Below, piece after piece: positions 16,926 to 26,666 of a stretch of DNA of 42,796 nucleotides (its first letter is position 1; each line of letters starts with the position of its first letter). The notes beneath the pieces were generated by a model, which worked only from the letters and a program-made list of their open reading frames with translations, made no database searches and was not told the origin of the DNA. The position numbers were made by a program, and so were the translations under genes. Origin of the DNA: an uncultured bacterium. Lineage in GTDB: Bacteria > Vulcanimicrobiota > Vulcanimicrobiia > Vulcanimicrobiales > Vulcanimicrobiaceae. Location of the stretch: assembly GCA_903829325.1 (NCBI GenBank), contig CAIKPM010000007.1, forward strand, positions 1 through 42,796. The letters are read 5' to 3'.

Positions 16926-17012
16926 ATGATCGATCTCATTTTGGGGGGAGTGCTGGCTACAGCACTCTTTGCCTATACGGCGTATGCCATGCTCTACCCG
17001 GAGAAATTTTAG
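16926..17012 (+). CDS. kdpF: KdpF, small subunit of the potassium ATPase
   Basis: This 28-residue ORF encodes one membrane helix with the KdpF pattern: an N-terminal hydrophobic stretch (LILGGVLATALFAYTAYAML) followed by YPEKF. KdpF stabilises the KdpABC complex. GGGGAG stands six bases before ATG 16926. The stop is one base from the kdpA start. Confidence 0.9.
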   Translation: MIDLILGGVLATALFAYTAYAMLYPEKF

Positions 17013-17013
17013 G

Positions 17014-18714
17014 ATGAGTTGGACAGGATGGCTCCAAGCCGGGTTTGTGTTGCTGATCATCATCCTGGCAACAAAACCGCTCGGCAGCTATATCGCAGCG
17101 GTTTTTGCCGGTGAGCGAAACGTGCTTTCCAAGCTCCTGCGCCCAATAGAGCATGGCTGCTACCGCCTCTGCCGCATCGATCCTCAACGAGAAATGCTCT
17201 GGCAAGAGTACGGCGGCGCGGTGCTGATCTTCAGCCTCGTCGGTTGCGGATATTTATTTGCGTTGCTACTCACCCAAGCATACCTACCGCTTAACCCCCA
17301 GCATGCCAGCAATTTCGCACCCGATCTTGCCTGGAATACCGCTGTTTCATTTACGACCAACACGAATTGGCAATTTTATTCTGGTGAAACCGCCATGAGT
17401 CAACTCTCGCAGATGATAGGCTTGGCCTGGCATAATTTCGTCTCGGCTGCTACGGGAATCGCGATTGCCATTGCAATGATCCGCGGCATCACTCGACGCG
17501 GAATCGCGACCCTCGGCAACTTCTGGGTTGATCTCACCCGCGCACTCCTCTACTTGCTCTTGCCGCTCTCATTGATCGGCGCGCTCGCTCTCTGCTGGCA
17601 AGGTGTACCACAAAACTTCCATCGCTATACGCAAATCACGACCTATGAGCACGGCAGCCAACTCTTACCCCAAGGGCCCATCGCCTCCCAAGAAATCATC
17701 AAACTCTTAGGGACCAACGGCGGTGGTTATGTGAACGCCAACTCAGCCTCACCCAGCGAAAATCCGACCCCGCTCTCCAACCTCATCGAAATGGTGAGCA
17801 TGTTCCTCATCGGCGCCGCGCTCACGTATACATACGGCCGGTACGCCCGCGACCAGCGCCAAGGTTGGGCAATTTTCGTGGCAATGGCCATTCTATTCGT
17901 CGCCGGTTTTGCGAGCGTGTACGCCGCCGAGGCTGCCGGCAACCCCATTGTTCATCAGCTTGGGGTAGCGGGCGGGAATATGGAAGGCAAGGAGGTCCGC
18001 TTCGGGCTGCCGGGCTCCGCCCTCTTTGCAACCATGACCACCGATACATCGTGCGGTGCCGTCAATGCAATGCACGACTCGTTCACGCCACTGGGTGGGC
18101 TAGTACTCTTGCTCAATATGCAGCTCGGCGAAGTCGTTTTCGGCGGCGTCGGCTCTGGGCTCTACGGCATTCTCCTCTTCGTCATCCTCACCGTATTTAT
18201 TGCGGGCCTTATGGTGGGTCGGACCCCCGAATATTTAGGCAAAAAAATTGAGCGCCGGGAAGTGCAGTATGCGATCCTGGCCGCCTTAGTAGTACCGATT
18301 TTCGCATTACTACCCACTGCAATTGCCGCAGTATTGCCAAGCGCGCTCAATACTCTCGGCAATGCCGGACCGCATGGATTTAGCGAAATCCTCTACGCGT
18401 ATAGTTCTGGAGTCAATAATAACGGCTCGGCGTTTGGCGGCCTCGGCCCCAATCTCTGGTGGAATCTTTCGCTCAGCGTGGTGATGCTCGTCGGCCGCTT
18501 CGGCATCATCGTGCCAGCTCTGGCGCTCGCAGGCTCGCTCGCCAACAAACGGGTCGTCCCAGCCAGCGTCGGCACCTTCGAAACGTGCTCGCCGATTTTC
18601 GTTCTCCTGCTCATCGGCGTGATTTTGATCGTAGGCGCACTCACGTTTTTCCCAGCTGATGCCCTCGGGCCAATCGTTGAACAACTTTTGATGCAAAAAG
18701 GGACCACATGGTAA
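17014..18714 (+). CDS. kdpA: Potassium-transporting ATPase subunit A
   Basis: KdpA is the channel-like subunit that selects and carries K+. The 566-residue protein has about ten membrane helices. Selectivity-filter segments are visible as [54 protein letters not shown] and [13 protein letters not shown]. The second differs mildly from the usual N-x-x-HPFENPT. ATG 17014 follows the kdpF stop by one base. The 3' end overlaps kdpB by seven bases. Length is normal. Confidence 0.97.
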
Positions 18715-20753
18715 CCAACCGACAACGTCCTGCCCTCTTTGAAAGCACACTGCTCTGGCCCGCGATCAAATCATCTTTAGTCAAATTGGACCCGCGACAG
18801 CAGCTGCGCAATCCGGTCATGTTCGTCGTCGAAGTCGCGGCCGCAACCTGCACCTTGCTCGCCTTACGGGACGCCACCAAAAGCAACGCCGGATTTGATT
18901 GTGCGATCGCGGCTTGGCTCTGGTTTACCGTGCTGTTTGCCAATTTCGCCGAAGCGATCGCCGAAGGACGCGGCAAAGCCCAAGCAGACACGCTGCGCCG
19001 CAGCCGCAGCGACACCTACGCCCGACGTTTGCACGACGACGGCAGCGAAACGCAGGTCATCTCTGCGGATCTACGCCAAGGCGACCGCGTGATCGCCGAA
19101 GCCAACGACATTATTGCCGCCGACGGCGAGATCATCGAAGGCGCCGCCAGCGTCGATGAGTCAGCGATTACCGGCGAGTCGGCGCCCGTCATCCGCGAAG
19201 CCGGAGGGGATCGATCTTCGGTTACTGGAGGCACCCGCGTCCTCTCGGATCGCATCGTCTTTCGGGTGAGCGCCAACCCCGGCAGTTCGTTTCTGGATCG
19301 AATGATCGCCCTGGTCGAAGGCGCAAGCCGCCAAAAGACACCCAACGAGATTGCACTTTCGATTTTGCTCTGCGGCCTCACGCTGATTTTTTTGGTCGCC
19401 GTCACCACGCTTGCGCCCTTTTCGCTCTACGCCGGAAGCATGCCGAGCCTTGTCGAGCTCATCGCGCTGTTAATCTGCTTGATTCCAACCACCATCGGCG
19501 GCTTACTCTCGGCCATCGGGATTGCCGGGATGGATCGCGTGTTACAACGCAATGTGCTCGCCGTCAGCGGCCGCGCGGTCGAAGCCGCGGGCGATATTGA
19601 TACCCTCCTCCTCGATAAAACCGGCACGATCACGCTCGGGAATCGCCAAGCGAGCGAAATCGTGCTCGCGCCTGGCGTTACTCAGGCCACCGCGTATCGT
19701 GCGGCCTTTCTCGCGTCATCCTGCGACGAAACGCCGGAAGGGCGCTCGATCGTCGCTCTGAGCCACCAAGCCGACGTCAGCATGCCTGACAACGCTGCCC
19801 CGGTGCCGTTTAGCGCCTACACCCGCCTCTCCGGTATCGATCTGCCCAACGGAGAGCAATACCGCAAAGGCGCCCCCGAATCACTGCGGGCGTGGATTGC
19901 GCACAAAAACCAAGCACCAAACGACAACCATACGGTTTTGAGCAGCGAAGTAGAGCGCATCGCTCGCGCCGGTGGCACGCCTTTGCTGCTAGCCGACGCG
20001 ACCCGGATCTTGGGGGTAATCCTCTTGCGCGACGTCCTCAAGCCCAATACCCGCGAACGCTTTGCTCGCCTGCGTGCGATGGGGATACGCACGGTGATGA
20101 TTACCGGCGACAACCCGCTGACCGCTAGCGCAATTGCCACAGAAGCTGGCGTCGATGACTTTCTCGCCGAGGCTACCCCCGAAACAAAAATGGACCTGAT
20201 CAAACGCGAGCAGCGCGAAGGGCGACTCATCGCCATGACCGGCGACGGCACCAACGACGCGCCGGCACTCGCTCAAGCCGATGTTGGCGTCGCGATGAAC
20301 ACCGGCACCCAAGCCGCCAAAGAAGCCGCGAATATGGTGGATTTGGACTCTGACCCCACCAAGCTCATTGAAATCGTCGAAATCGGTAAGCAACTCCTGA
20401 TGACGCGTGGCGCTCTGACCACGTTTTCCATCGCGAACGATGTCGCCAAATATTTCGCGATTCTGCCGGCGATGTTCGCAGCAACCTACCCTGTCATGAA
20501 TCGTCTCAATATCATGCATCTCGCAACGCCCCAGAGCGCGATTCTTTCGGCGATTATTTTCAATGCGCTGATCATCATTGGGCTCATCCCCCTAGCGTTG
20601 CGAGGAGTGCCTTACAGACCTCGTGGCGCGAACGCAGTCTTGCAAGAAAATGTGCTTATTTATGGGCTCGGCGGGCTAATCGTGCCCTTTATCGGCATCA
20701 AAGCGATCGATCTACTCCTCCTAGCCCTTCACCTGACAAAGGGGCAATCATGA
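18708..20753 (+). CDS. kdpB: Potassium-transporting ATPase ATP-binding subunit B
   Basis: KdpB is the P-type ATPase that powers K+ uptake. In the 681 residues, TGES marks the actuator domain (with the serine that in E. coli KdpB is phosphorylated to inhibit the pump), [19 protein letters not shown] the membrane ion path, DKTGTIT the phosphorylated Asp, KGAPES the nucleotide pocket, and [17 protein letters not shown] the hinge. All are intact. It overlaps kdpA by seven bases and kdpC by four (ATGA). Confidence 0.98.
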
Positions 20754-21373
20754 ACAAACGTTCAGCAACCTGGGGGCAATCGTTGCTCTACACATTCTGG
20801 AGCGTCATCGTCTTTGGTTTGCTCTACCCGCTCATGATCGCAATCCTAGCCCATTACTTAATGCCAATCCAGGCCGATGGCTCACTGATTCGAGATAAGC
20901 ACGGAGTCATCATCGGCAGCAGCCTGAGTGGGCAACTGTTCACAAAGCAAGGATATTTCCACTCACGACCCTCCGCCGCGGGGAACGGCTATGATCCCAC
21001 TCAGTCTGGGGGCAGCAACCTTGGCCCTACGAGCAACAAGCTCATCGAGACCACCCGGGCCAACGTACTCCACCTGCGTCAGGAAAATCCCCAAGCACCA
21101 GCTACGATCCCCGCTGATCTCGCCAGTACCAGCGCGAGTGGCCTCGATCCCGAGATCTCACCCGAAGCTGCCACCTTCCAGCTCGCCCGCGTTGCCAATG
21201 CCACGCAGCTCAGCGGTACGCAGCTGCGTGCATTGATCCAGCTGCAAACGATTCAACCGGAGCTTGGCTTCATCGGTGAGCCGCGGGTAAATGTGCTCAA
21301 GCTCAACCTTGCAGTGCAAAATTTGATCTTTTGTACGCATTTGCCAAGAGATTGCCGAACCAGTGTAAAATGA
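20750..21373 (+). CDS. kdpC: Potassium-transporting ATPase subunit C
   Basis: KdpC has one N-terminal membrane helix (~12-35) and an extracytoplasmic domain that couples KdpA and KdpB. The family motifs [27 protein letters not shown] and [14 protein letters not shown] are present, as is NVLKLN near the end. The final ~20 residues ([16 protein letters not shown]) extend past the usual end and contain two cysteines. ATG 20750 overlaps the kdpB stop. Confidence 0.96.
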
Positions 21374-21503
21374 GGGTAAAGCTCGTGGTTTTGACGTGCC
21401 CGTCTCCGGTCTTCAAGAAGAGGTTTCGTTGACGTCAAGCAAGCGAGTGAGCCTCATTGCTAACTCAATCTCGCTCGTATCGAGCAAGGAACATTTGCTT
21501 ATC
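21374..21503 (+). promoter_or_regulatory. Leader between kdpC and the outer-membrane gene
   Basis: This 130-base gap holds a perfect palindrome TTGACGTCAA (21429-21438), a small hairpin GCTCG-TAT-CGAGC (21473-21485), and AAGGA 13 bases before the next ATG. TTGACG hexamers begin at 21391 and 21429, but neither has a convincing -10 partner. The outer-membrane gene may therefore be read through from kdp with local control. Confidence 0.3.
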
Positions 21504-22298
21504 ATGAAGCGTTTTCTTACGGCGCTCACGCTGGCTGCGCTTGCAACAACCGCACCTGCGTTTGCCGCGACTTCCCTGAGCGATCTCGTCGATCGCCCCA
21601 CCGTCACCGATGCAGCTTTAACCCTGGCCCCGAACACGGTCCTCGTCGAAGCTGGCTACGACAACCTGTCATACAAGGGCATCGGCTCGGTTGCTACCTA
21701 CCCACAAATTAGTGCCAAAATTGGTACCGAATTCAAGAATCTCGAGCTCGACGTTGTCGCTCCAAGTGAACAACGCAAATCGGTCAGTGGCAGCACCGTC
21801 ACGGGCGGAACCAATATCGCTGCGGGCCTCAAGTACCTCATCCTCCACGCGAAGCGTTATGCGGTGAGCGGTGAACTCGGCGTCCAGATCCCGACCGGCA
21901 CGATCGGATTTCCCGGCGTTTACACCAAGACGCAAACCTCCGTTGCAGTCGATGCAAACTACAAAATCAATAAGACCTTTACCGTCAAGACCACTCAGCG
22001 CTTCACCGCTCAGAGCATCCCCGGTGACCGTTATGGTTCTTACACACCTTCGTATGCACTCTCAGCCGCGCTTCCTTACAAAACAAATGTGTTTGCTGAA
22101 TATGCTTCCTTCGGCCGTTTCACTGGGCCAGCTACGAAATCAGCACGCTTTTTCCAAGTTGGTGCCAATCATGAGTTGAGCAGCAACCTGATCATCGACG
22201 TGGAAGCCGGACGATATGCCAGCTACACCGACACTGGCTCAGGTTATTCTCTCCCCAAGGGTACCCAAATCGGTTTCGGCGCAGCGTACAAGCTCTAG
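21504..22298 (+). CDS. Outer-membrane beta-barrel protein
   Basis: The 264-residue protein starts with a clear Sec signal peptide (MKRFLTALTLAALATTAPAFA, cleavage near residue 21). The remainder is alternating beta strands ending in GFGAAYKL, as expected for a barrel closing strand, though its last residue is Leu rather than Phe. The overall pattern resembles small porin-like or transporter-like barrels (MetA-pathway type). ATG 21504 is chosen because it begins the signal peptide. It follows kdpC in the same direction and may serve ion entry across the outer membrane together with Kdp. That is inference. Confidence 0.8.
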   Translation: MKRFLTALTLAALATTAPAFAATSLSDLVDRPTVTDAALTLAPNTVLVEAGYDNLSYKGIGSVATYPQISAKIGTEFKNLELDVVAPSEQRKSVSGSTVTGGTNIAAGLKYLILHAKRYAVSGELGVQIPTGTIGFPGVYTKTQTSVAVDANYKINKTFTVKTTQRFTAQSIPGDRYGSYTPSYALSAALPYKTNVFAEYASFGRFTGPATKSARFFQVGANHELSSNLIIDVEAGRYASYTDTGSGYSLPKGTQIGFGAAYKL

Positions 22299-22328: not shown

Positions 22329-22372
22329 AGTAGAGGAGCCAGCAAGATGTGTTGCTGGCTCCTCTACTTTTC
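22329..22372 (+). terminator. Strong terminator shared by converging genes
   Basis: A 17-bp perfect stem (22329-22345 with 22352-22368, including GTAGAGGAGCCAGCAA) closes a 6-base loop. TTTTC-rich sequence follows on the plus strand, ending kdp and the barrel gene. The leftward kdpD-like gene's TAG stop lies inside the right arm (22366-22364). On that strand no U-run follows, so it may act less well there. Confidence 0.85.
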
Positions 22373-24400
22373 TGCGGTCATGCTGCGGAGCACGAAGAGT
22401 TCTTTCGCGTCGGCTTTGAGCAAGCGCTGGGCAAACGAGGGTTTTCCCAGGAACCTCCGCGACTGATGCGTCGATTCGACAGCCACCAAGTCATGCTCAC
22501 CGGCTAACGCAGCTAAGGCTTCTGCGGCATCCTTGCCGATGCGAGCAAAGAAAATGCCGCCGGCCGCCGCAGAGACCTGCACAAAGCGTTCATGCAGGGC
22601 CAGCGATAGCGGCTCCGCCGTAATGCAAAACACCCAGAGCTGGACATGCAAACGCTTTGCCAAACGCGCGACCTTTTCAATCAGGCGTGTTTGCGTCTCC
22701 CGCGGTGCGACACCCAACAGAATACGCGCGAACGGCCGACCAAAACGGCGCACACTCCGCGCACGGCGTAATTCTCGCACCGCTAATTCGCGCAAAGCAA
22801 CAAGCTGTTCATAGCGGAAAAAATTCGCTAACGCAGCCTCAACGCGCTCTAAGGGATAGATTTTTCCAGCCCGCAAGCGCTCTTGTAAAACATCCGAAGA
22901 AACGTCAATAAACACCACGTCGCTTGCAATATCTAGGACTTCGTCCGGCACAGTCTCGCGCACGCGGATGGCCGCCAGTCGCTCGACAGCCTCGCCAACA
23001 CCCTCAAGATGCTGGATGTTGACCGTTGTCAACACGTCAATCCCCGCCGCAAGGCAATCCAAAATATCTTCGTAGCGTTTGCGATGCAATGCTTGCGCTG
23101 GATTCGTGTGGGCTAATTCGTCGATCAACGCGACTTGGGGGCGGCGGCGCAGCAAGCCCGCTAGATCGAGCTCCCCGTTCGGCTGCCGAGGCAGCACCTC
23201 CAATTGGCCGACCATCGCAGCGGTATCCGCCCGGCCATGCGTTTCGAGAAGCCCCGCGACCACATCAACCCCCGTTTGCCGCAGTTGCTGGGCTCGATCA
23301 AGCATGGCGTAAGTCTTGCCGCTACCCGCGACCGACCCTACATAAATCGTTAGGGCACCAGCTTCGGGATTGGCCCGCAACGCCTGGGCGCGCTCCGAAA
23401 CTGCGCCGACCATCGGCAACGGCCGACGCTGAGGGTCAGCAATCAAGAGCGAGCGATCCAGTGGCCCCCGCAACAGGCGCTGGGCCAACTTGCCAGGCGT
23501 GAGCGCAATCATCGTAGCCTGGGCAGACTGCACATCACCGTGCAAGATGGCGGGATCAAGACTCACCGCGTGCGCGCCCAGATCCTGGACCGCTTCGAGC
23601 AAAGGTTCGTCTTCAAGCGTAAGTCCCCCGACGTCCAAAGCCAGGTTGAGCGCGTCGGCGATTGCCGCCACCCGCTGCAAAAAAGGGAGCGGGTCCTGAT
23701 TATCAACGACCAAAGCCAGCGCCCGCGACGTGCGACTCGGGGGAATTTGAGGCTCAGTCATATCGTCAACAATCTGCCAGAGCAAAGCACGTAGCGTCTG
23801 CACGACCTGGGGTCGCAAAATGCCTCGACTCGCGCGGGAAATATCTTCGGCACGCACGATTGCACGCTGATCCAAACGTTGCTGCAACACTTCTAAAGGA
23901 ACATCAATCGCCACAACGCGGTCGGCTTCACGCAACACCTGGTTCGGCACAATCTCCGTGAGGGGAAACTCAATCACCCGTTCCGCAACGGGAGCCACCG
24001 ATTCGATATGATACACATTGCAGGCGGTCAATACCGATTTTCCCGCCCGGCGTAACGCGACGACGTCTTGCCAGCGCTTCGAATGCAGACTACCGCGGGG
24101 ATTCGTATGCGCTAATTCATCGATCAGGATAATTTCTGCATCGCTAGCGAGCGCCGCGGCAACATCAAAATCGAGAAACGTTGCGTACTCAATGGAAAAC
24201 GACTTCGCGGGAATACAGGGCAGCTGCGCCGCTAACGCATCGAGATCGGGGCGCCCCTTGGTCTCAATCCAACCAATTGCCACTCGACGACCGGCCTGCT
24301 GTTCGAGCAAGCCATCGTGCAGCAAGCGGTGCGTTTTTCCCACACCTGGCACGCTGCCCAAATAGACGACCAATTTCGCGGTTTGAACGTCCATATGCAT
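22364..24400 (-). CDS. Tandem KdpD sensor protein without kinase domain
   Basis: The 678-residue protein contains the KdpD N-terminal domain twice. Copy 1 has Walker A GSVPGVGKT (15-23) and LIDELAHTN (92-100). Copy 2 has GSVAGSGKT (355-363) and LIDELAHTN (425-433), followed by NIQHLEGVGEAVE. After each copy comes a universal-stress-protein-like segment (~225-325; ~555-670, with ARILLGVAPRE). The four membrane helices, GAF region and histidine-kinase domains of ordinary KdpD (~900 aa) are absent. Short kinase-less KdpD proteins are known from cyanobacteria, but those carry one copy. It probably senses K+, ATP or a nucleotide signal and acts through a partner, perhaps the divergent kinase. ATG 24400; GAGGAG lies 14 bases upstream. 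Confidence 0.92.
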   Translation of the reverse strand: MHMDVQTAKLVVYLGSVPGVGKTHRLLHDGLLEQQAGRRVAIGWIETKGRPDLDALAAQLPCIPAKSFSIEYATFLDFDVAAALASDAEIILIDELAHTNPRGSLHSKRWQDVVALRRAGKSVLTACNVYHIESVAPVAERVIEFPLTEIVPNQVLREADRVVAIDVPLEVLQQRLDQRAIVRAEDISRASRGILRPQVVQTLRALLWQIVDDMTEPQIPPSRTSRALALVVDNQDPLPFLQRVAAIADALNLALDVGGLTLEDEPLLEAVQDLGAHAVSLDPAILHGDVQSAQATMIALTPGKLAQRLLRGPLDRSLLIADPQRRPLPMVGAVSERAQALRANPEAGALTIYVGSVAGSGKTYAMLDRAQQLRQTGVDVVAGLLETHGRADTAAMVGQLEVLPRQPNGELDLAGLLRRRPQVALIDELAHTNPAQALHRKRYEDILDCLAAGIDVLTTVNIQHLEGVGEAVERLAAIRVRETVPDEVLDIASDVVFIDVSSDVLQERLRAGKIYPLERVEAALANFFRYEQLVALRELAVRELRRARSVRRFGRPFARILLGVAPRETQTRLIEKVARLAKRLHVQLWVFCITAEPLSLALHERFVQVSAAAGGIFFARIGKDAAEALAALAGEHDLVAVESTHQSRRFLGKPSFAQRLLKADAKELFVLRSMTAEK

Positions 24401-24453
24401 CGGCGTTTGCGTATCTCCTCGCCGGCTCCCTGTATCAGGGACAGGGCCAGTCC

Positions 24454-26022
24454 ATGGGCGATACCAACACTGTGGCTGTGCGTAATTCCCTGATCATCGC
24501 AGGAACGTGGGGCTTCTTGCTCCTGGTCTTTCTCGTCGATGCATACACCCCACAAGATCTCGTGATCGCAATTTTGTTTACGATCCCAATCGTCTTGGCA
24601 GCTTTAACGCGCATTAGGCAGCATATTTTTGCGATGGTCATCGCCGCCTTAGCTGGCGATCTGACGGCGGCGATTCTTAACGCCCAACGCGACCATAACC
24701 ATTGGGATATCGTCGGGGTTTGGAATCGCGTTTTGTCAGCGTTCTCCATTGTGCTTGTCGGCTATCTCAGCACCGCCGTCCAAGAACGCGCGCACCACGT
24801 TGGCCTGGTCATGGCTCGTGAGGCGCGCATGCGACGCGAGATTTCCCTGGCCGCCGCAATCGATCGTCTGCGCACACTGCTCTCGCGTGAGCTCGTTGAA
24901 CGCGCGTTGGTGCGCGAAGCCGCCTGCCTGTTCGAAGTCGATGGCGTATCCTGGCTCTCCACACAGCGCGATTACCCGATGTTGAGCGTCAATAGCAACG
25001 ATCGCACCACAATAGACGAACACGCTGTCGAAGGAACCGAGTTGACTTCCCTGATGCAAAGCGTGCTCGATGGCATGCTCCCGCGTCAGCTCAGCCGTGC
25101 CGATGCATTCGGCCGACTCATCCTCGCGCGCTACAAACGCAGCAGCGCCATTGCGTTCCCCGTCCGCGAAGGGGGCGCGGCGTACGGAACATTGATTTTA
25201 TGGAGCAATAGCGAGCACGTCATCGATGATGACGATATTCTGACCGCCCGCATGTTTTTGCGCTCGGTCGCAACCGCACTCGGTCGCGCCGAACTGTTCG
25301 CCGAGCTTGCCAATCGCAATGAAACGATCGCCGAACGCAACGCGATCATCCGCGATGTTGTCTACGCGCTTACCCACGATCTCCGCACCCCGCTCAGTGC
25401 CCTCGGGGTCACCATGCGACAAGCACGCAATAATGCATACGGCAACCTCCCGCCACGATACGCAGAAATTCTCGACGCAAGTATCGCCGCAATCGACGAT
25501 CTGCAACGGCTGGCTGAAACGCTGCTAACCGTCGCACGGATCGAAAGCGGGGAATTACGCACGACGCGTGACCCACTTGATCTGCAAACACTGCTGAGTG
25601 AGGTCTCCACAGAATTCTCGGCAATGGCAGAACAACGCCAGATCAGCCTCACGCTCAAGCCACACGAAGCGGTCACGATCCTTGGTGATCGCGGCGACCT
25701 GCGTCGCGCAATCACCAATCTCCTCGCAAACGCGCTCGAGCATACCCCCACCCAGGGCCACGTGGAGTTGAGCCTCGAACTGCAAGGGAATGTAGTGCGC
25801 GTGCATGTCCGCGATGATGGCTACGGCATCGACCCCGAACAACGCTCGTCACTCTTTGAGCGATTTTCATCTGCCAGATCAGCTACGGGACGCGGTACAG
25901 GCTTGGGCCTATACATCGTGCGGCGGATCACCGAAGCCGCAGCTGGCACCGTGCAATATACGCCCTTGCAACCCCGCGGCTCACTCTTCACCCTCGCTTT
26001 CCCGATCATAGGACGCTCGTGA
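24454..26022 (+). CDS. Membrane histidine kinase with GAF-like domain
   Basis: The 522-residue protein has about four membrane helices (~10-115), a linker and GAF-like domain (~155-290), a HisKA domain with H308 in THDLRTPL, and an HATPase domain with NLLANALEH, DDGYGID and GRGTGLGLYIV. All catalytic boxes are intact. ATG 24454 begins the first membrane region and has AGGG-rich sequence before it. It diverges from the tandem KdpD gene across 53 bases and overlaps the following regulator as GTGA. The layout suggests that this kinase supplies the membrane and transmitter parts missing from the KdpD-like protein, though no KdpD domain is present in it. Confidence 0.92.
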   Translation: MGDTNTVAVRNSLIIAGTWGFLLLVFLVDAYTPQDLVIAILFTIPIVLAALTRIRQHIFAMVIAALAGDLTAAILNAQRDHNHWDIVGVWNRVLSAFSIVLVGYLSTAVQERAHHVGLVMAREARMRREISLAAAIDRLRTLLSRELVERALVREAACLFEVDGVSWLSTQRDYPMLSVNSNDRTTIDEHAVEGTELTSLMQSVLDGMLPRQLSRADAFGRLILARYKRSSAIAFPVREGGAAYGTLILWSNSEHVIDDDDILTARMFLRSVATALGRAELFAELANRNETIAERNAIIRDVVYALTHDLRTPLSALGVTMRQARNNAYGNLPPRYAEILDASIAAIDDLQRLAETLLTVARIESGELRTTRDPLDLQTLLSEVSTEFSAMAEQRQISLTLKPHEAVTILGDRGDLRRAITNLLANALEHTPTQGHVELSLELQGNVVRVHVRDDGYGIDPEQRSSLFERFSSARSATGRGTGLGLYIVRRITEAAAGTVQYTPLQPRGSLFTLAFPIIGRS

Positions 26023-26666
26023 CATCAGAGCCCGAATCAATCCGCGTTTTTCTCGTCGAAGACCATGCCCTTACTCGGGCTGGTTTGCGCACGGCCTTTG
26101 CCGAGGCCGGGTTTTGCATCGTCGGGGAAAGTGGCGATGGACTCGCCGCGCAGCAGCAGATTCTTTCCCTGCAACCCCACGTCGCCGTACTCGATGTGGG
26201 CCTCCCCGGGCAAGATGGCATTGCGCTCAGCCGTGCGCTCAAAACTGCCTGCCCGCAGATGGGCATCGTTATCGTCACCATGCAAGAAGGTGAAGATTAT
26301 GTGTTTCCAGCTTTGACCGCTGGGGCCAACGCCTTTTGCGTCAAGACCTCGAATATAGCGACGGTCATCGATGCAGTGCGCACGGTCGCGGCGGGGGGAG
26401 CATATTTCGATCCGAAAATTGCCCACCTTATTTTAAACCGGCTGAATAACAGCAACACGCCACGCGCATCGCAAATTCTCACCCCACGCGAACTGGATAT
26501 TTTACGACTCGTCGCCGAGGGTCACGGGAATCTCGCTATCGCCGATATGCTCTACCTCGGCGTCGGTACAGTCAAGGGTCATATCCACGATATTCTCGAG
26601 AAATTATCCGCATCTGATCGCGCGCAAGCCGCAGTCATCGCCTTCCGTCAAGGGTGGTTACGTTAG
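26019..26666 (+). CDS. NarL/LuxR-family response regulator, partner of the kinase
   Basis: The receiver domain (~8-125) has a full acidic pocket (E14, D15), phospho-acceptor D59 in VLDVGLPG, T87 and K109. A LuxR-type helix-turn-helix fills ~150-210. GTG 26019 overlaps the kinase stop (GTGA), so the two are a matched pair. KdpE proteins that control kdp are OmpR-type with a winged helix; this one is NarL-type, so if it controls kdp the regulator has been swapped. The canonical receiver sets it apart from the two orphan NarL regulators in this window. Confidence 0.94.
   Translation: MTSEPESIRVFLVEDHALTRAGLRTAFAEAGFCIVGESGDGLAAQQQILSLQPHVAVLDVGLPGQDGIALSRALKTACPQMGIVIVTMQEGEDYVFPALTAGANAFCVKTSNIATVIDAVRTVAAGGAYFDPKIAHLILNRLNNSNTPRASQILTPRELDILRLVAEGHGNLAIADMLYLGVGTVKGHIHDILEKLSASDRAQAAVIAFRQGWLR

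What the first reader, a model, noticed from the sequence alone, without database searches (positions are those of the whole stretch)
22364..24400. KdpD sensor domain duplicated in tandem, with no kinase
Both copies keep Walker A and the DELAHTN motif, and each is followed by a USP-like segment, so this is a true internal duplication (KdpD-USP-KdpD-USP) with no membrane or transmitter part. Kinase-less single-copy KdpD proteins are known in cyanobacteria; I know of no fused double copy. A fused pseudo-dimer could sense K+ or a nucleotide by itself and act in trans. The two Walker A loops differ (PGVGKT versus AGSGKT), so the copies may have specialised.
Basis: partly seen in the sequence, partly recalled or inferred. 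Interest (0 to 1): 0.8.

Follow-up and report, generated by a model that had tools for sequence, protein, structure and literature searches.

The report
Two-headed KdpD pump-control protein
In an uncultured soil-bacterium lineage (Eremiobacteria), the part of the potassium sensor KdpD now known to switch off the potassium pump by serine phosphorylation is a separate protein with two fused copies, one standard and one rebuilt; similar fusions in two other bacterial phyla suggest a recurring and, as far as I could find, undescribed regulatory design.

Summary
The minus-strand ORF 24400-22364 (678 aa) carries two PF02702 domains, each followed by a USP-like segment, with no HisKA or HATPase. "No kinase" needs correcting: the PF02702 domain is itself an atypical serine kinase that phosphorylates KdpB Ser162 (PMC11018627). 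The fusion is not unique to this genome. It is near-universal among kdp-bearing Eremiobacteria, usually convergent with kdpFABC and divergent from a histidine kinase/LuxR-regulator pair. The C-terminal copy is canonical. The N-terminal copy forms its own clade: it keeps GKT, Walker B DE and the adenine-site Arg190, but replaces the adenine-stacking Tyr/Trp39 with Arg/His and fixes new residues (R40, K63, V197, D201).

I also found the same layout in Bacillota (diverged copy first, Walker B Glu lost in 7 of 8) and Chloroflexota (diverged copy second, Walker motifs degraded). A canonical kinase fused to a diverged partner probably arose more than once, although the tree does not exclude one origin. 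I found no publication describing it.

Best mechanism (inferred): the C-head phosphorylates KdpB Ser158 to shut the pump; the N-head is a nucleotide-binding regulatory partner. This is a new variant of a known kind.

The parts
22364..24400 (-). Double KdpD/USP gene, 678 aa (KdpD-USP-KdpD-USP; N copy diverged, C copy canonical)
23771..24379 (-). N-terminal PF02702 copy (diverged subfamily)
24332..24355 (-). N-copy Walker A SVPGVGKT (aa 16-23), followed by HR where canonical KdpD has YA/WA
24101..24121 (-). N-copy Walker B DELAHTN (aa 94-100)
23435..23737 (-). USP-like segment 1 (about aa 222-322), very diverged
   Evidence: no Pfam hit; profile probability 79%
22769..23362 (-). C-terminal PF02702 copy (canonical KdpD kinase domain)
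23312..23335 (-). C-copy Walker A SVAGSGKT (aa 356-363), followed by YA
23102..23122 (-). C-copy Walker B DELAHTN (aa 427-433)
22385..22735 (-). USP-like segment 2 (about aa 556-672)
16926..17012 (+). kdpF-like small ORF (28 aa, MIDLILGGVLATALFAYTAYAMLYPEKF)
   Evidence: sequence; identity by position and length, not tested by a family search
17014..18714 (+). kdpA (ORF listed from 16969; ATG at 17014 follows kdpF)
18708..20753 (+). kdpB; TGES motif with Ser158, equivalent of E. coli Ser162
20750..21373 (+). kdpC
24454..26022 (+). Divergent histidine kinase (hydrophobic N-terminus, weak GAF-like region, HisKA, HATPase_c)
26019..26666 (+). Response regulator with LuxR/GerE output domain (not OmpR-type KdpE)

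Best explanation
The gene encodes a soluble, two-headed regulator of the Kdp potassium pump. The C-terminal KdpD head is a canonical atypical serine kinase that phosphorylates the TGES serine of KdpB (Ser158 here) and so stops the pump when potassium is sufficient. The N-terminal head is an ancient, diverged copy that still has an intact P-loop and Walker B but a rebuilt base-binding site; it acts in cis as a nucleotide-binding regulatory partner of the C head. Transcription of kdp is handled separately by the divergently encoded histidine kinase and LuxR-type regulator. Shown: domain content, conserved residues, gene linkage, phylogeny. Inferred: KdpB as substrate (by homology with E. coli and D. 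geothermalis KdpD), the regulatory role of the N head, and control of kdp by the neighbouring two-component pair.
For: PF02702 is an experimentally shown serine kinase, also as an isolated domain and as a short KdpD/USP protein (PMC11018627). In the C copy every named catalytic residue is kept: K37/T38, D109/E110 and R190, with an aromatic at 39, in 46 of 46 kdp-linked Eremiobacteria doubles (a 47th row in that group is the Bacillota L068). KdpB keeps TGES in 34 of 34 full-length Eremiobacteria KdpBs. The gene sits beside kdpABC in most relatives, and no other PF02702 protein above the family cut-off exists in the window's genome. The N copies form one clade (100/100 support, stem 1.4) with their own fixed residues R40, K63, V197, D201, while GKT, D109, E110 and R190 stay (nearly) invariant: selection maintains a functional but altered nucleotide site. 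Mean identity is 61% among N copies and 71% among C copies, against 39% between copies of one protein. In lineages where the pump is missing or elsewhere the signatures erode in 3 of 5: L123 C copy K37T, L122 C copy H113R, L126 N copy E110D. Bacillota and Chloroflexota show the same pairing of one canonical and one diverged copy beside kdpABC.
Against: No biochemistry was possible. In four genomes of 93-96% completeness (G017, G018, G036, G042) the double gene exists without a detected KdpA, so some members must do something else or be relics. The N copy keeps all tested catalytic residues except the aromatic at 39, so calling it regulatory rather than a second active kinase is a judgement. 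The model gives no oligomer or domain-contact evidence.
Confidence: 0.6

Rival explanations
1. Both heads are active serine kinases with different substrates or nucleotides: the C head acts on KdpB, and the N head acts on another protein such as the neighbouring histidine kinase or response regulator, or uses a nucleotide other than ATP.
For: The N copy keeps Walker A, Walker B D/E, H113 and R190 in every kdp-linked Eremiobacteria member that could be read, unlike the Bacillota and Chloroflexota partners, most of which lost catalytic residues. Its base-site positions changed together and became fixed.
Against: The aromatic of the adenine pair is lost in 55 of 60 N copies, and the W39A/R190A double mutant of E. 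coli KdpD is nearly inactive (PMC11018627). No candidate substrate was identified.
Confidence: 0.22
2. The protein is mainly a sensor that regulates the neighbouring histidine kinase in trans, replacing the missing N-terminal part of a split KdpD.
For: The histidine kinase is divergently adjacent in about 39-40 of the 42 loci with enough upstream sequence to show it. Split KdpD/USP plus TM/GAF/HK pairs are known (PMC11018627).
Against: The histidine kinase's membrane and GAF-like part shows no detectable relation to KdpD's (profile probability 3%). The regulator is LuxR-type, not KdpE. Three loci with a double gene lack the histidine kinase (L022, L039, L050).
Confidence: 0.12
3. Dosage or structural redundancy: the second copy only provides a fused dimer scaffold with no distinct function.
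For: Fusion of two copies of a domain is a common route to pseudo-dimers (general knowledge). The layout recurs in three phyla.
Against: The diverged clade has its own invariant residues and a long stem followed by strong conservation, which simple redundancy would not give.
Confidence: 0.06

Closest known systems
Short KdpD/USP proteins without histidine kinase (D. geothermalis KdpD; NCBIfam NF038185 KdpD_non_kinase)
   Same: PF02702 plus USP, no membrane or transmitter part, encoded beside kdpABC, canonical Walker A/B and R190
   Different: Two fused KdpD-USP units instead of one; the N unit is remodelled at the base site; the published c-di-AMP motif is absent; scores 390 against a cut-off of 550 for NF038185
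E. coli full-length KdpD (tandem serine/histidine kinase)
   Same: C-terminal head aligns with the KdpD domain at about 41% identity and keeps all serine-kinase residues
   Different: No four-helix membrane part, GAF, DHp or CA domain in the same chain; a separate histidine kinase whose input part is not detectably related; LuxR-type regulator instead of KdpE
Split KdpD (KdpD/USP kinase plus TM/GAF/HK chain) reported in Acidobacteriota and Chloroflexota
   Same: Serine-kinase and histidine-kinase functions on separate chains
   Different: Kinase chain doubled; gene usually convergent with kdpFABC and divergent from the histidine kinase
Double KdpD-USP proteins of Bacillota and Chloroflexota found here
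   Same: KdpD-USP-KdpD-USP, one canonical and one diverged copy, beside kdpABC
   Different: Diverged copy has lost catalytic residues (E110 in 7 of 8 Bacillota; Walker A Lys, Walker B Glu or both in Chloroflexota); order reversed in Chloroflexota

Membership tests
KdpD-type atypical serine kinase (PMC11018627) | PF02702 domain | tested here: met
   Two copies over the Pfam cut-off
KdpD-type atypical serine kinase (PMC11018627) | Walker A GKT and Walker B Asp109/Glu110 | tested here: met
   Both copies in the window; invariant in nearly all relatives
KdpD-type atypical serine kinase (PMC11018627) | Adenine pair, aromatic 39 plus Arg190, in the C copy | tested here: met
   Tyr39 in 61 of 62 and Arg190 in 61 of 61 readable C copies
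KdpD-type atypical serine kinase (PMC11018627) | Adenine pair, aromatic 39 plus Arg190, in the N copy | tested here: not met
   Arg190 kept 62 of 62, but position 39 is Arg or His in 55 of 60, His in the window
KdpD-type atypical serine kinase (PMC11018627) | Substrate serine in KdpB TGES | tested here: met
   Ser158 in the window; 34 of 34 full-length Eremiobacteria KdpBs
KdpD-type atypical serine kinase (PMC11018627) | Phosphorylation of KdpB and pump inhibition | not testable with these tools
   Needs purified proteins
NF038185 KdpD_non_kinase | Whole-protein score over the curated cut-off | tested here: not met
   390.1 bits against 550
KdpD sensor histidine kinase | HisKA and HATPase_c in the same chain | tested here: not met
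   No match
KdpD with c-di-AMP-binding USP | Motif (A/G/C)XSXSX2N(Y/F) (PMC8214093) | tested here: not met
   Absent from all N and C copies; the motif was derived from Firmicutes, so absence is not proof
KdpD with c-di-AMP-binding USP | Diadenylate cyclase in the genome | tested here: met
   One DAC protein in the window's genome; but none detected in G035, G041, G043 and G051, which have KdpA and the double gene

The most novel reading that the evidence does not exclude
Fusion of a canonical KdpD serine kinase with a diverged partner arose independently in three phyla, as a bacterial parallel to kinase-pseudokinase pairs. In Eremiobacteria the partner did not die but became a new, still catalytic P-loop head with altered nucleotide or substrate choice, giving two-input control of one potassium pump, sometimes redeployed beside cation/proton antiporters.
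Probability: 0.25. Interest if true: 0.72.

Novelty: new variant of a known kind. Interest (0 to 1): 0.52.

Why it matters
KdpD's serine-kinase activity was reported only in 2024, and how it is controlled when membrane sensor domains are missing is open. Proteins that carry a canonical kinase fused to a diverged partner, found here in three phyla, give natural comparisons of what regulates it. The Eremiobacteria form argues against c-di-AMP as the only input for histidine-kinase-less KdpDs, and its remodelled, conserved base site is a concrete, testable candidate for the missing sensor.

Tried and rejected
Split-KdpD origin of the neighbouring histidine kinase: profile comparison of its input part with KdpD TM/GAF gave probability 3%, so not claimed. 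c-di-AMP motif: absent from both USPs and from the Bacillota and Chloroflexota doubles checked. Walker A loop difference as the sign of specialisation: rejected, since position 33 varies in single KdpDs and position 35 varies within both copies. Independent origin as proven fact: the AU test does not reject one clade of all diverged copies (p 0.27), nor of the Eremiobacteria and Bacillota ones (p 0.23), nor sisterhood of the Eremiobacteria N and C copies (p 0.45); several origins are favoured only by reversed order, different lesions and nearest relatives of the canonical copies. Palindrome TCCCTGTATCAGGGA in the 53-base intergenic region: one exact copy, not conserved in relatives, dropped. 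Plasmid collection: no record where one place covers 80% of the query. Literature searches for a double or tandem KdpD, or KdpD with Eremiobacterota, found nothing relevant. The supplementary data of PMC11018627 could not be read, so a double form might be listed there.

Full report
OBSERVATION. The ORF at 22364-24400 lies on the minus strand (678 aa). Pfam gives two PF02702 domains and no transmitter or membrane family. The halves align at 33% identity, E = 3e-35. Both carry GKT and DELAHTN. The AlphaFold model (51-sequence alignment, mean pLDDT 89.6, pTM 0.71) is an all alpha/beta protein. Its best PDB match is 2r8r, the N-terminal region of KdpD, and tandem-type USPs also match. The USP assignment is good for the second segment and weak but supported for the first. 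The gene is the only PF02702 protein above the family cut-off in its 1.89-Mb genome; its nearest relatives are Candidatus Eremiobacterota.

WHAT THE DOMAIN IS. Silberberg et al. (PMC11018627) showed that the PF02702 domain of KdpD is an atypical serine kinase. It uses Walker A, Walker B D109/E110 and the adenine pair W39/R190 to phosphorylate KdpB Ser162, inhibiting the pump at high K+. The isolated domain is active. A short KdpD/USP protein from D. geothermalis does the same and responds to c-di-AMP. They also report separate KdpD/USP and TM/GAF/HK chains in some phyla. So the title's "no kinase" is not right: the histidine kinase is missing, the serine kinase is not.

DISTRIBUTION. Of 60 relatives, nearly all kdp-bearing members of the same class have two PF02702 matches in one frame of about 700-790 aa, broken only by contig ends or gaps in a few. 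Two other families of the phylum have single copies (G055, 397 aa; G058, 647 aa). A genome-collection scan brought about 50 more Eremiobacterota loci with the double gene. The gene is usually convergent with kdpABC (40 of 52 loci) and divergent from a histidine kinase/LuxR-regulator pair (HK 42 and RR 38 of 52 by script, many of the rest cut by contig ends; the script missed L017's histidine kinase because of an over-long ORF). In the window, kdpF (16926-17012), kdpA, kdpB and kdpC precede a predicted outer-membrane-like protein and the double gene.

THE TWO COPIES DIFFER IN A DEFINED WAY. The C copies look like ordinary KdpD. The N copies keep GKT, D109, E110, H113 and R190, but position 39 is Arg or His in 55 of 60, and they fix R40, L41, K63, L68, A141, A154, A179, V197 and D201 where C copies and single KdpDs mostly have A, M, H, T, T, V, L, Y and R/K/Q. 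In kdp-linked loci the signatures are intact in 44 of 44 readable Eremiobacteria N copies and 46 of 46 C copies; the one deviating row in that table is the Bacillota L068. In trees the N copies form one clade with full support and a long stem (1.4 changes per column), and the C copies form another (one search agrees for N). One ancient duplication before the radiation of the class, followed by a burst of change in N and then conservation, is the simplest reading.

RECURRENCE ELSEWHERE. Neobacillus pocheonensis (L068) led to a family search in which 8 of 20 KdpD-bearing genomes have 764-814-aa doubles, directly downstream of kdpABC where the loci were read. A wider Bacillota sample gave 4 of 13. 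There the N copy is diverged and has lost Walker B Glu in 7 of 8 (Asp, Ser, Thr, Gly, Val or Asn instead). In Chloroflexota, 5 of 46 KdpD-bearing genomes have doubles (plus one interrupted, L119). There the first copy is canonical and the second diverged: each of the seven diverged copies read has lost Walker A Lys, Walker B Glu, or both. L120 has two unfused neighbouring KdpD/USP genes, a plausible precursor state. None of 15 KdpD-bearing Actinomycetota has a double. Reversed order, different lesions and separate clades favour repeated origin, but topology tests do not exclude one origin of the diverged copies.

MECHANISM. The C head most likely phosphorylates KdpB Ser158 (TGES kept in 34 of 34 full-length Eremiobacteria KdpBs). 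The N head is most likely a regulatory nucleotide-binding partner. Its conserved catalytic residues leave open that it is a second active kinase. c-di-AMP as input is doubtful: the published motif is absent, and G035, G041, G043 and G051 (96-98% complete) have KdpA and the double gene but no detected diadenylate cyclase. Arginine stacking on adenine or a changed base preference are possible readings of R39/R40; no coordinates were available to test this.

EXCEPTIONS THAT INFORM. G017, G018, G036 and G042 have the double gene but no detected KdpA. In G036 and in a second copy of G034 the gene is convergent with a Na+/H+-exchanger-family protein, and in G034 also next to a TrkA protein. In G042 it neighbours an Nramp transporter. 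Three of the five copies examined here have damaged signatures (C-copy K37T in L123, C-copy H113R in L122, N-copy E110D in L126). This fits selection on these residues being tied to the pump, and hints at redeployment or decay where it is missing.

LIMITS. No biochemical test; survey limited to four phyla; the literature library lacks most subscription journals, and supplements could not be read.

Noticed in passing
L126 6485-10574 and L124 9286-12562: Second or kdp-unlinked double KdpD genes sit convergent with a Na_H_Exchanger-family protein, in L126 also beside a TrkA_N/TrkA_C protein, suggesting use with another cation transporter.
   Followed up: partly
L125 8718-12434: A double KdpD gene in a genome without detected KdpA lies next to an Nramp-family metal transporter.
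   Followed up: partly
L120 1180-3622: Chloroflexota genome with two unfused, adjacent KdpD/USP genes after kdpABC, a plausible precursor of the fused form.
   Followed up: partly
window 24454-26666: A HisKA-type histidine kinase is paired with a LuxR/NarL-type response regulator, an unusual combination, conserved beside kdp in Eremiobacteria.
   Followed up: partly
window 16926-17012: kdpF-like 28-aa ORF ahead of kdpA; kdpA probably starts at 17014, not at the listed TTG 16969.
   Followed up: partly
window 21396-22298: Signal-peptide-bearing, probably beta-rich protein of no known family between kdpC and the double gene, kept in the nearest relatives (about 31-37% identity).
   Followed up: no
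window 24427-24441: Perfect palindrome TCCCTGTATCAGGGA in the 53-base divergent intergenic region; not conserved in relatives.
   Followed up: yes
L024, L065: Bins labelled Rhodospirillales carry the Eremiobacteria cassette and share exact PF02702 match coordinates and scores with G015 and G007; probably mislabelled.
   Followed up: no
L068 6842-12831: Neobacillus pocheonensis has both a double KdpD and, next to it, a 902-aa full-length-sized KdpD with a very diverged sequence.
   Followed up: partly
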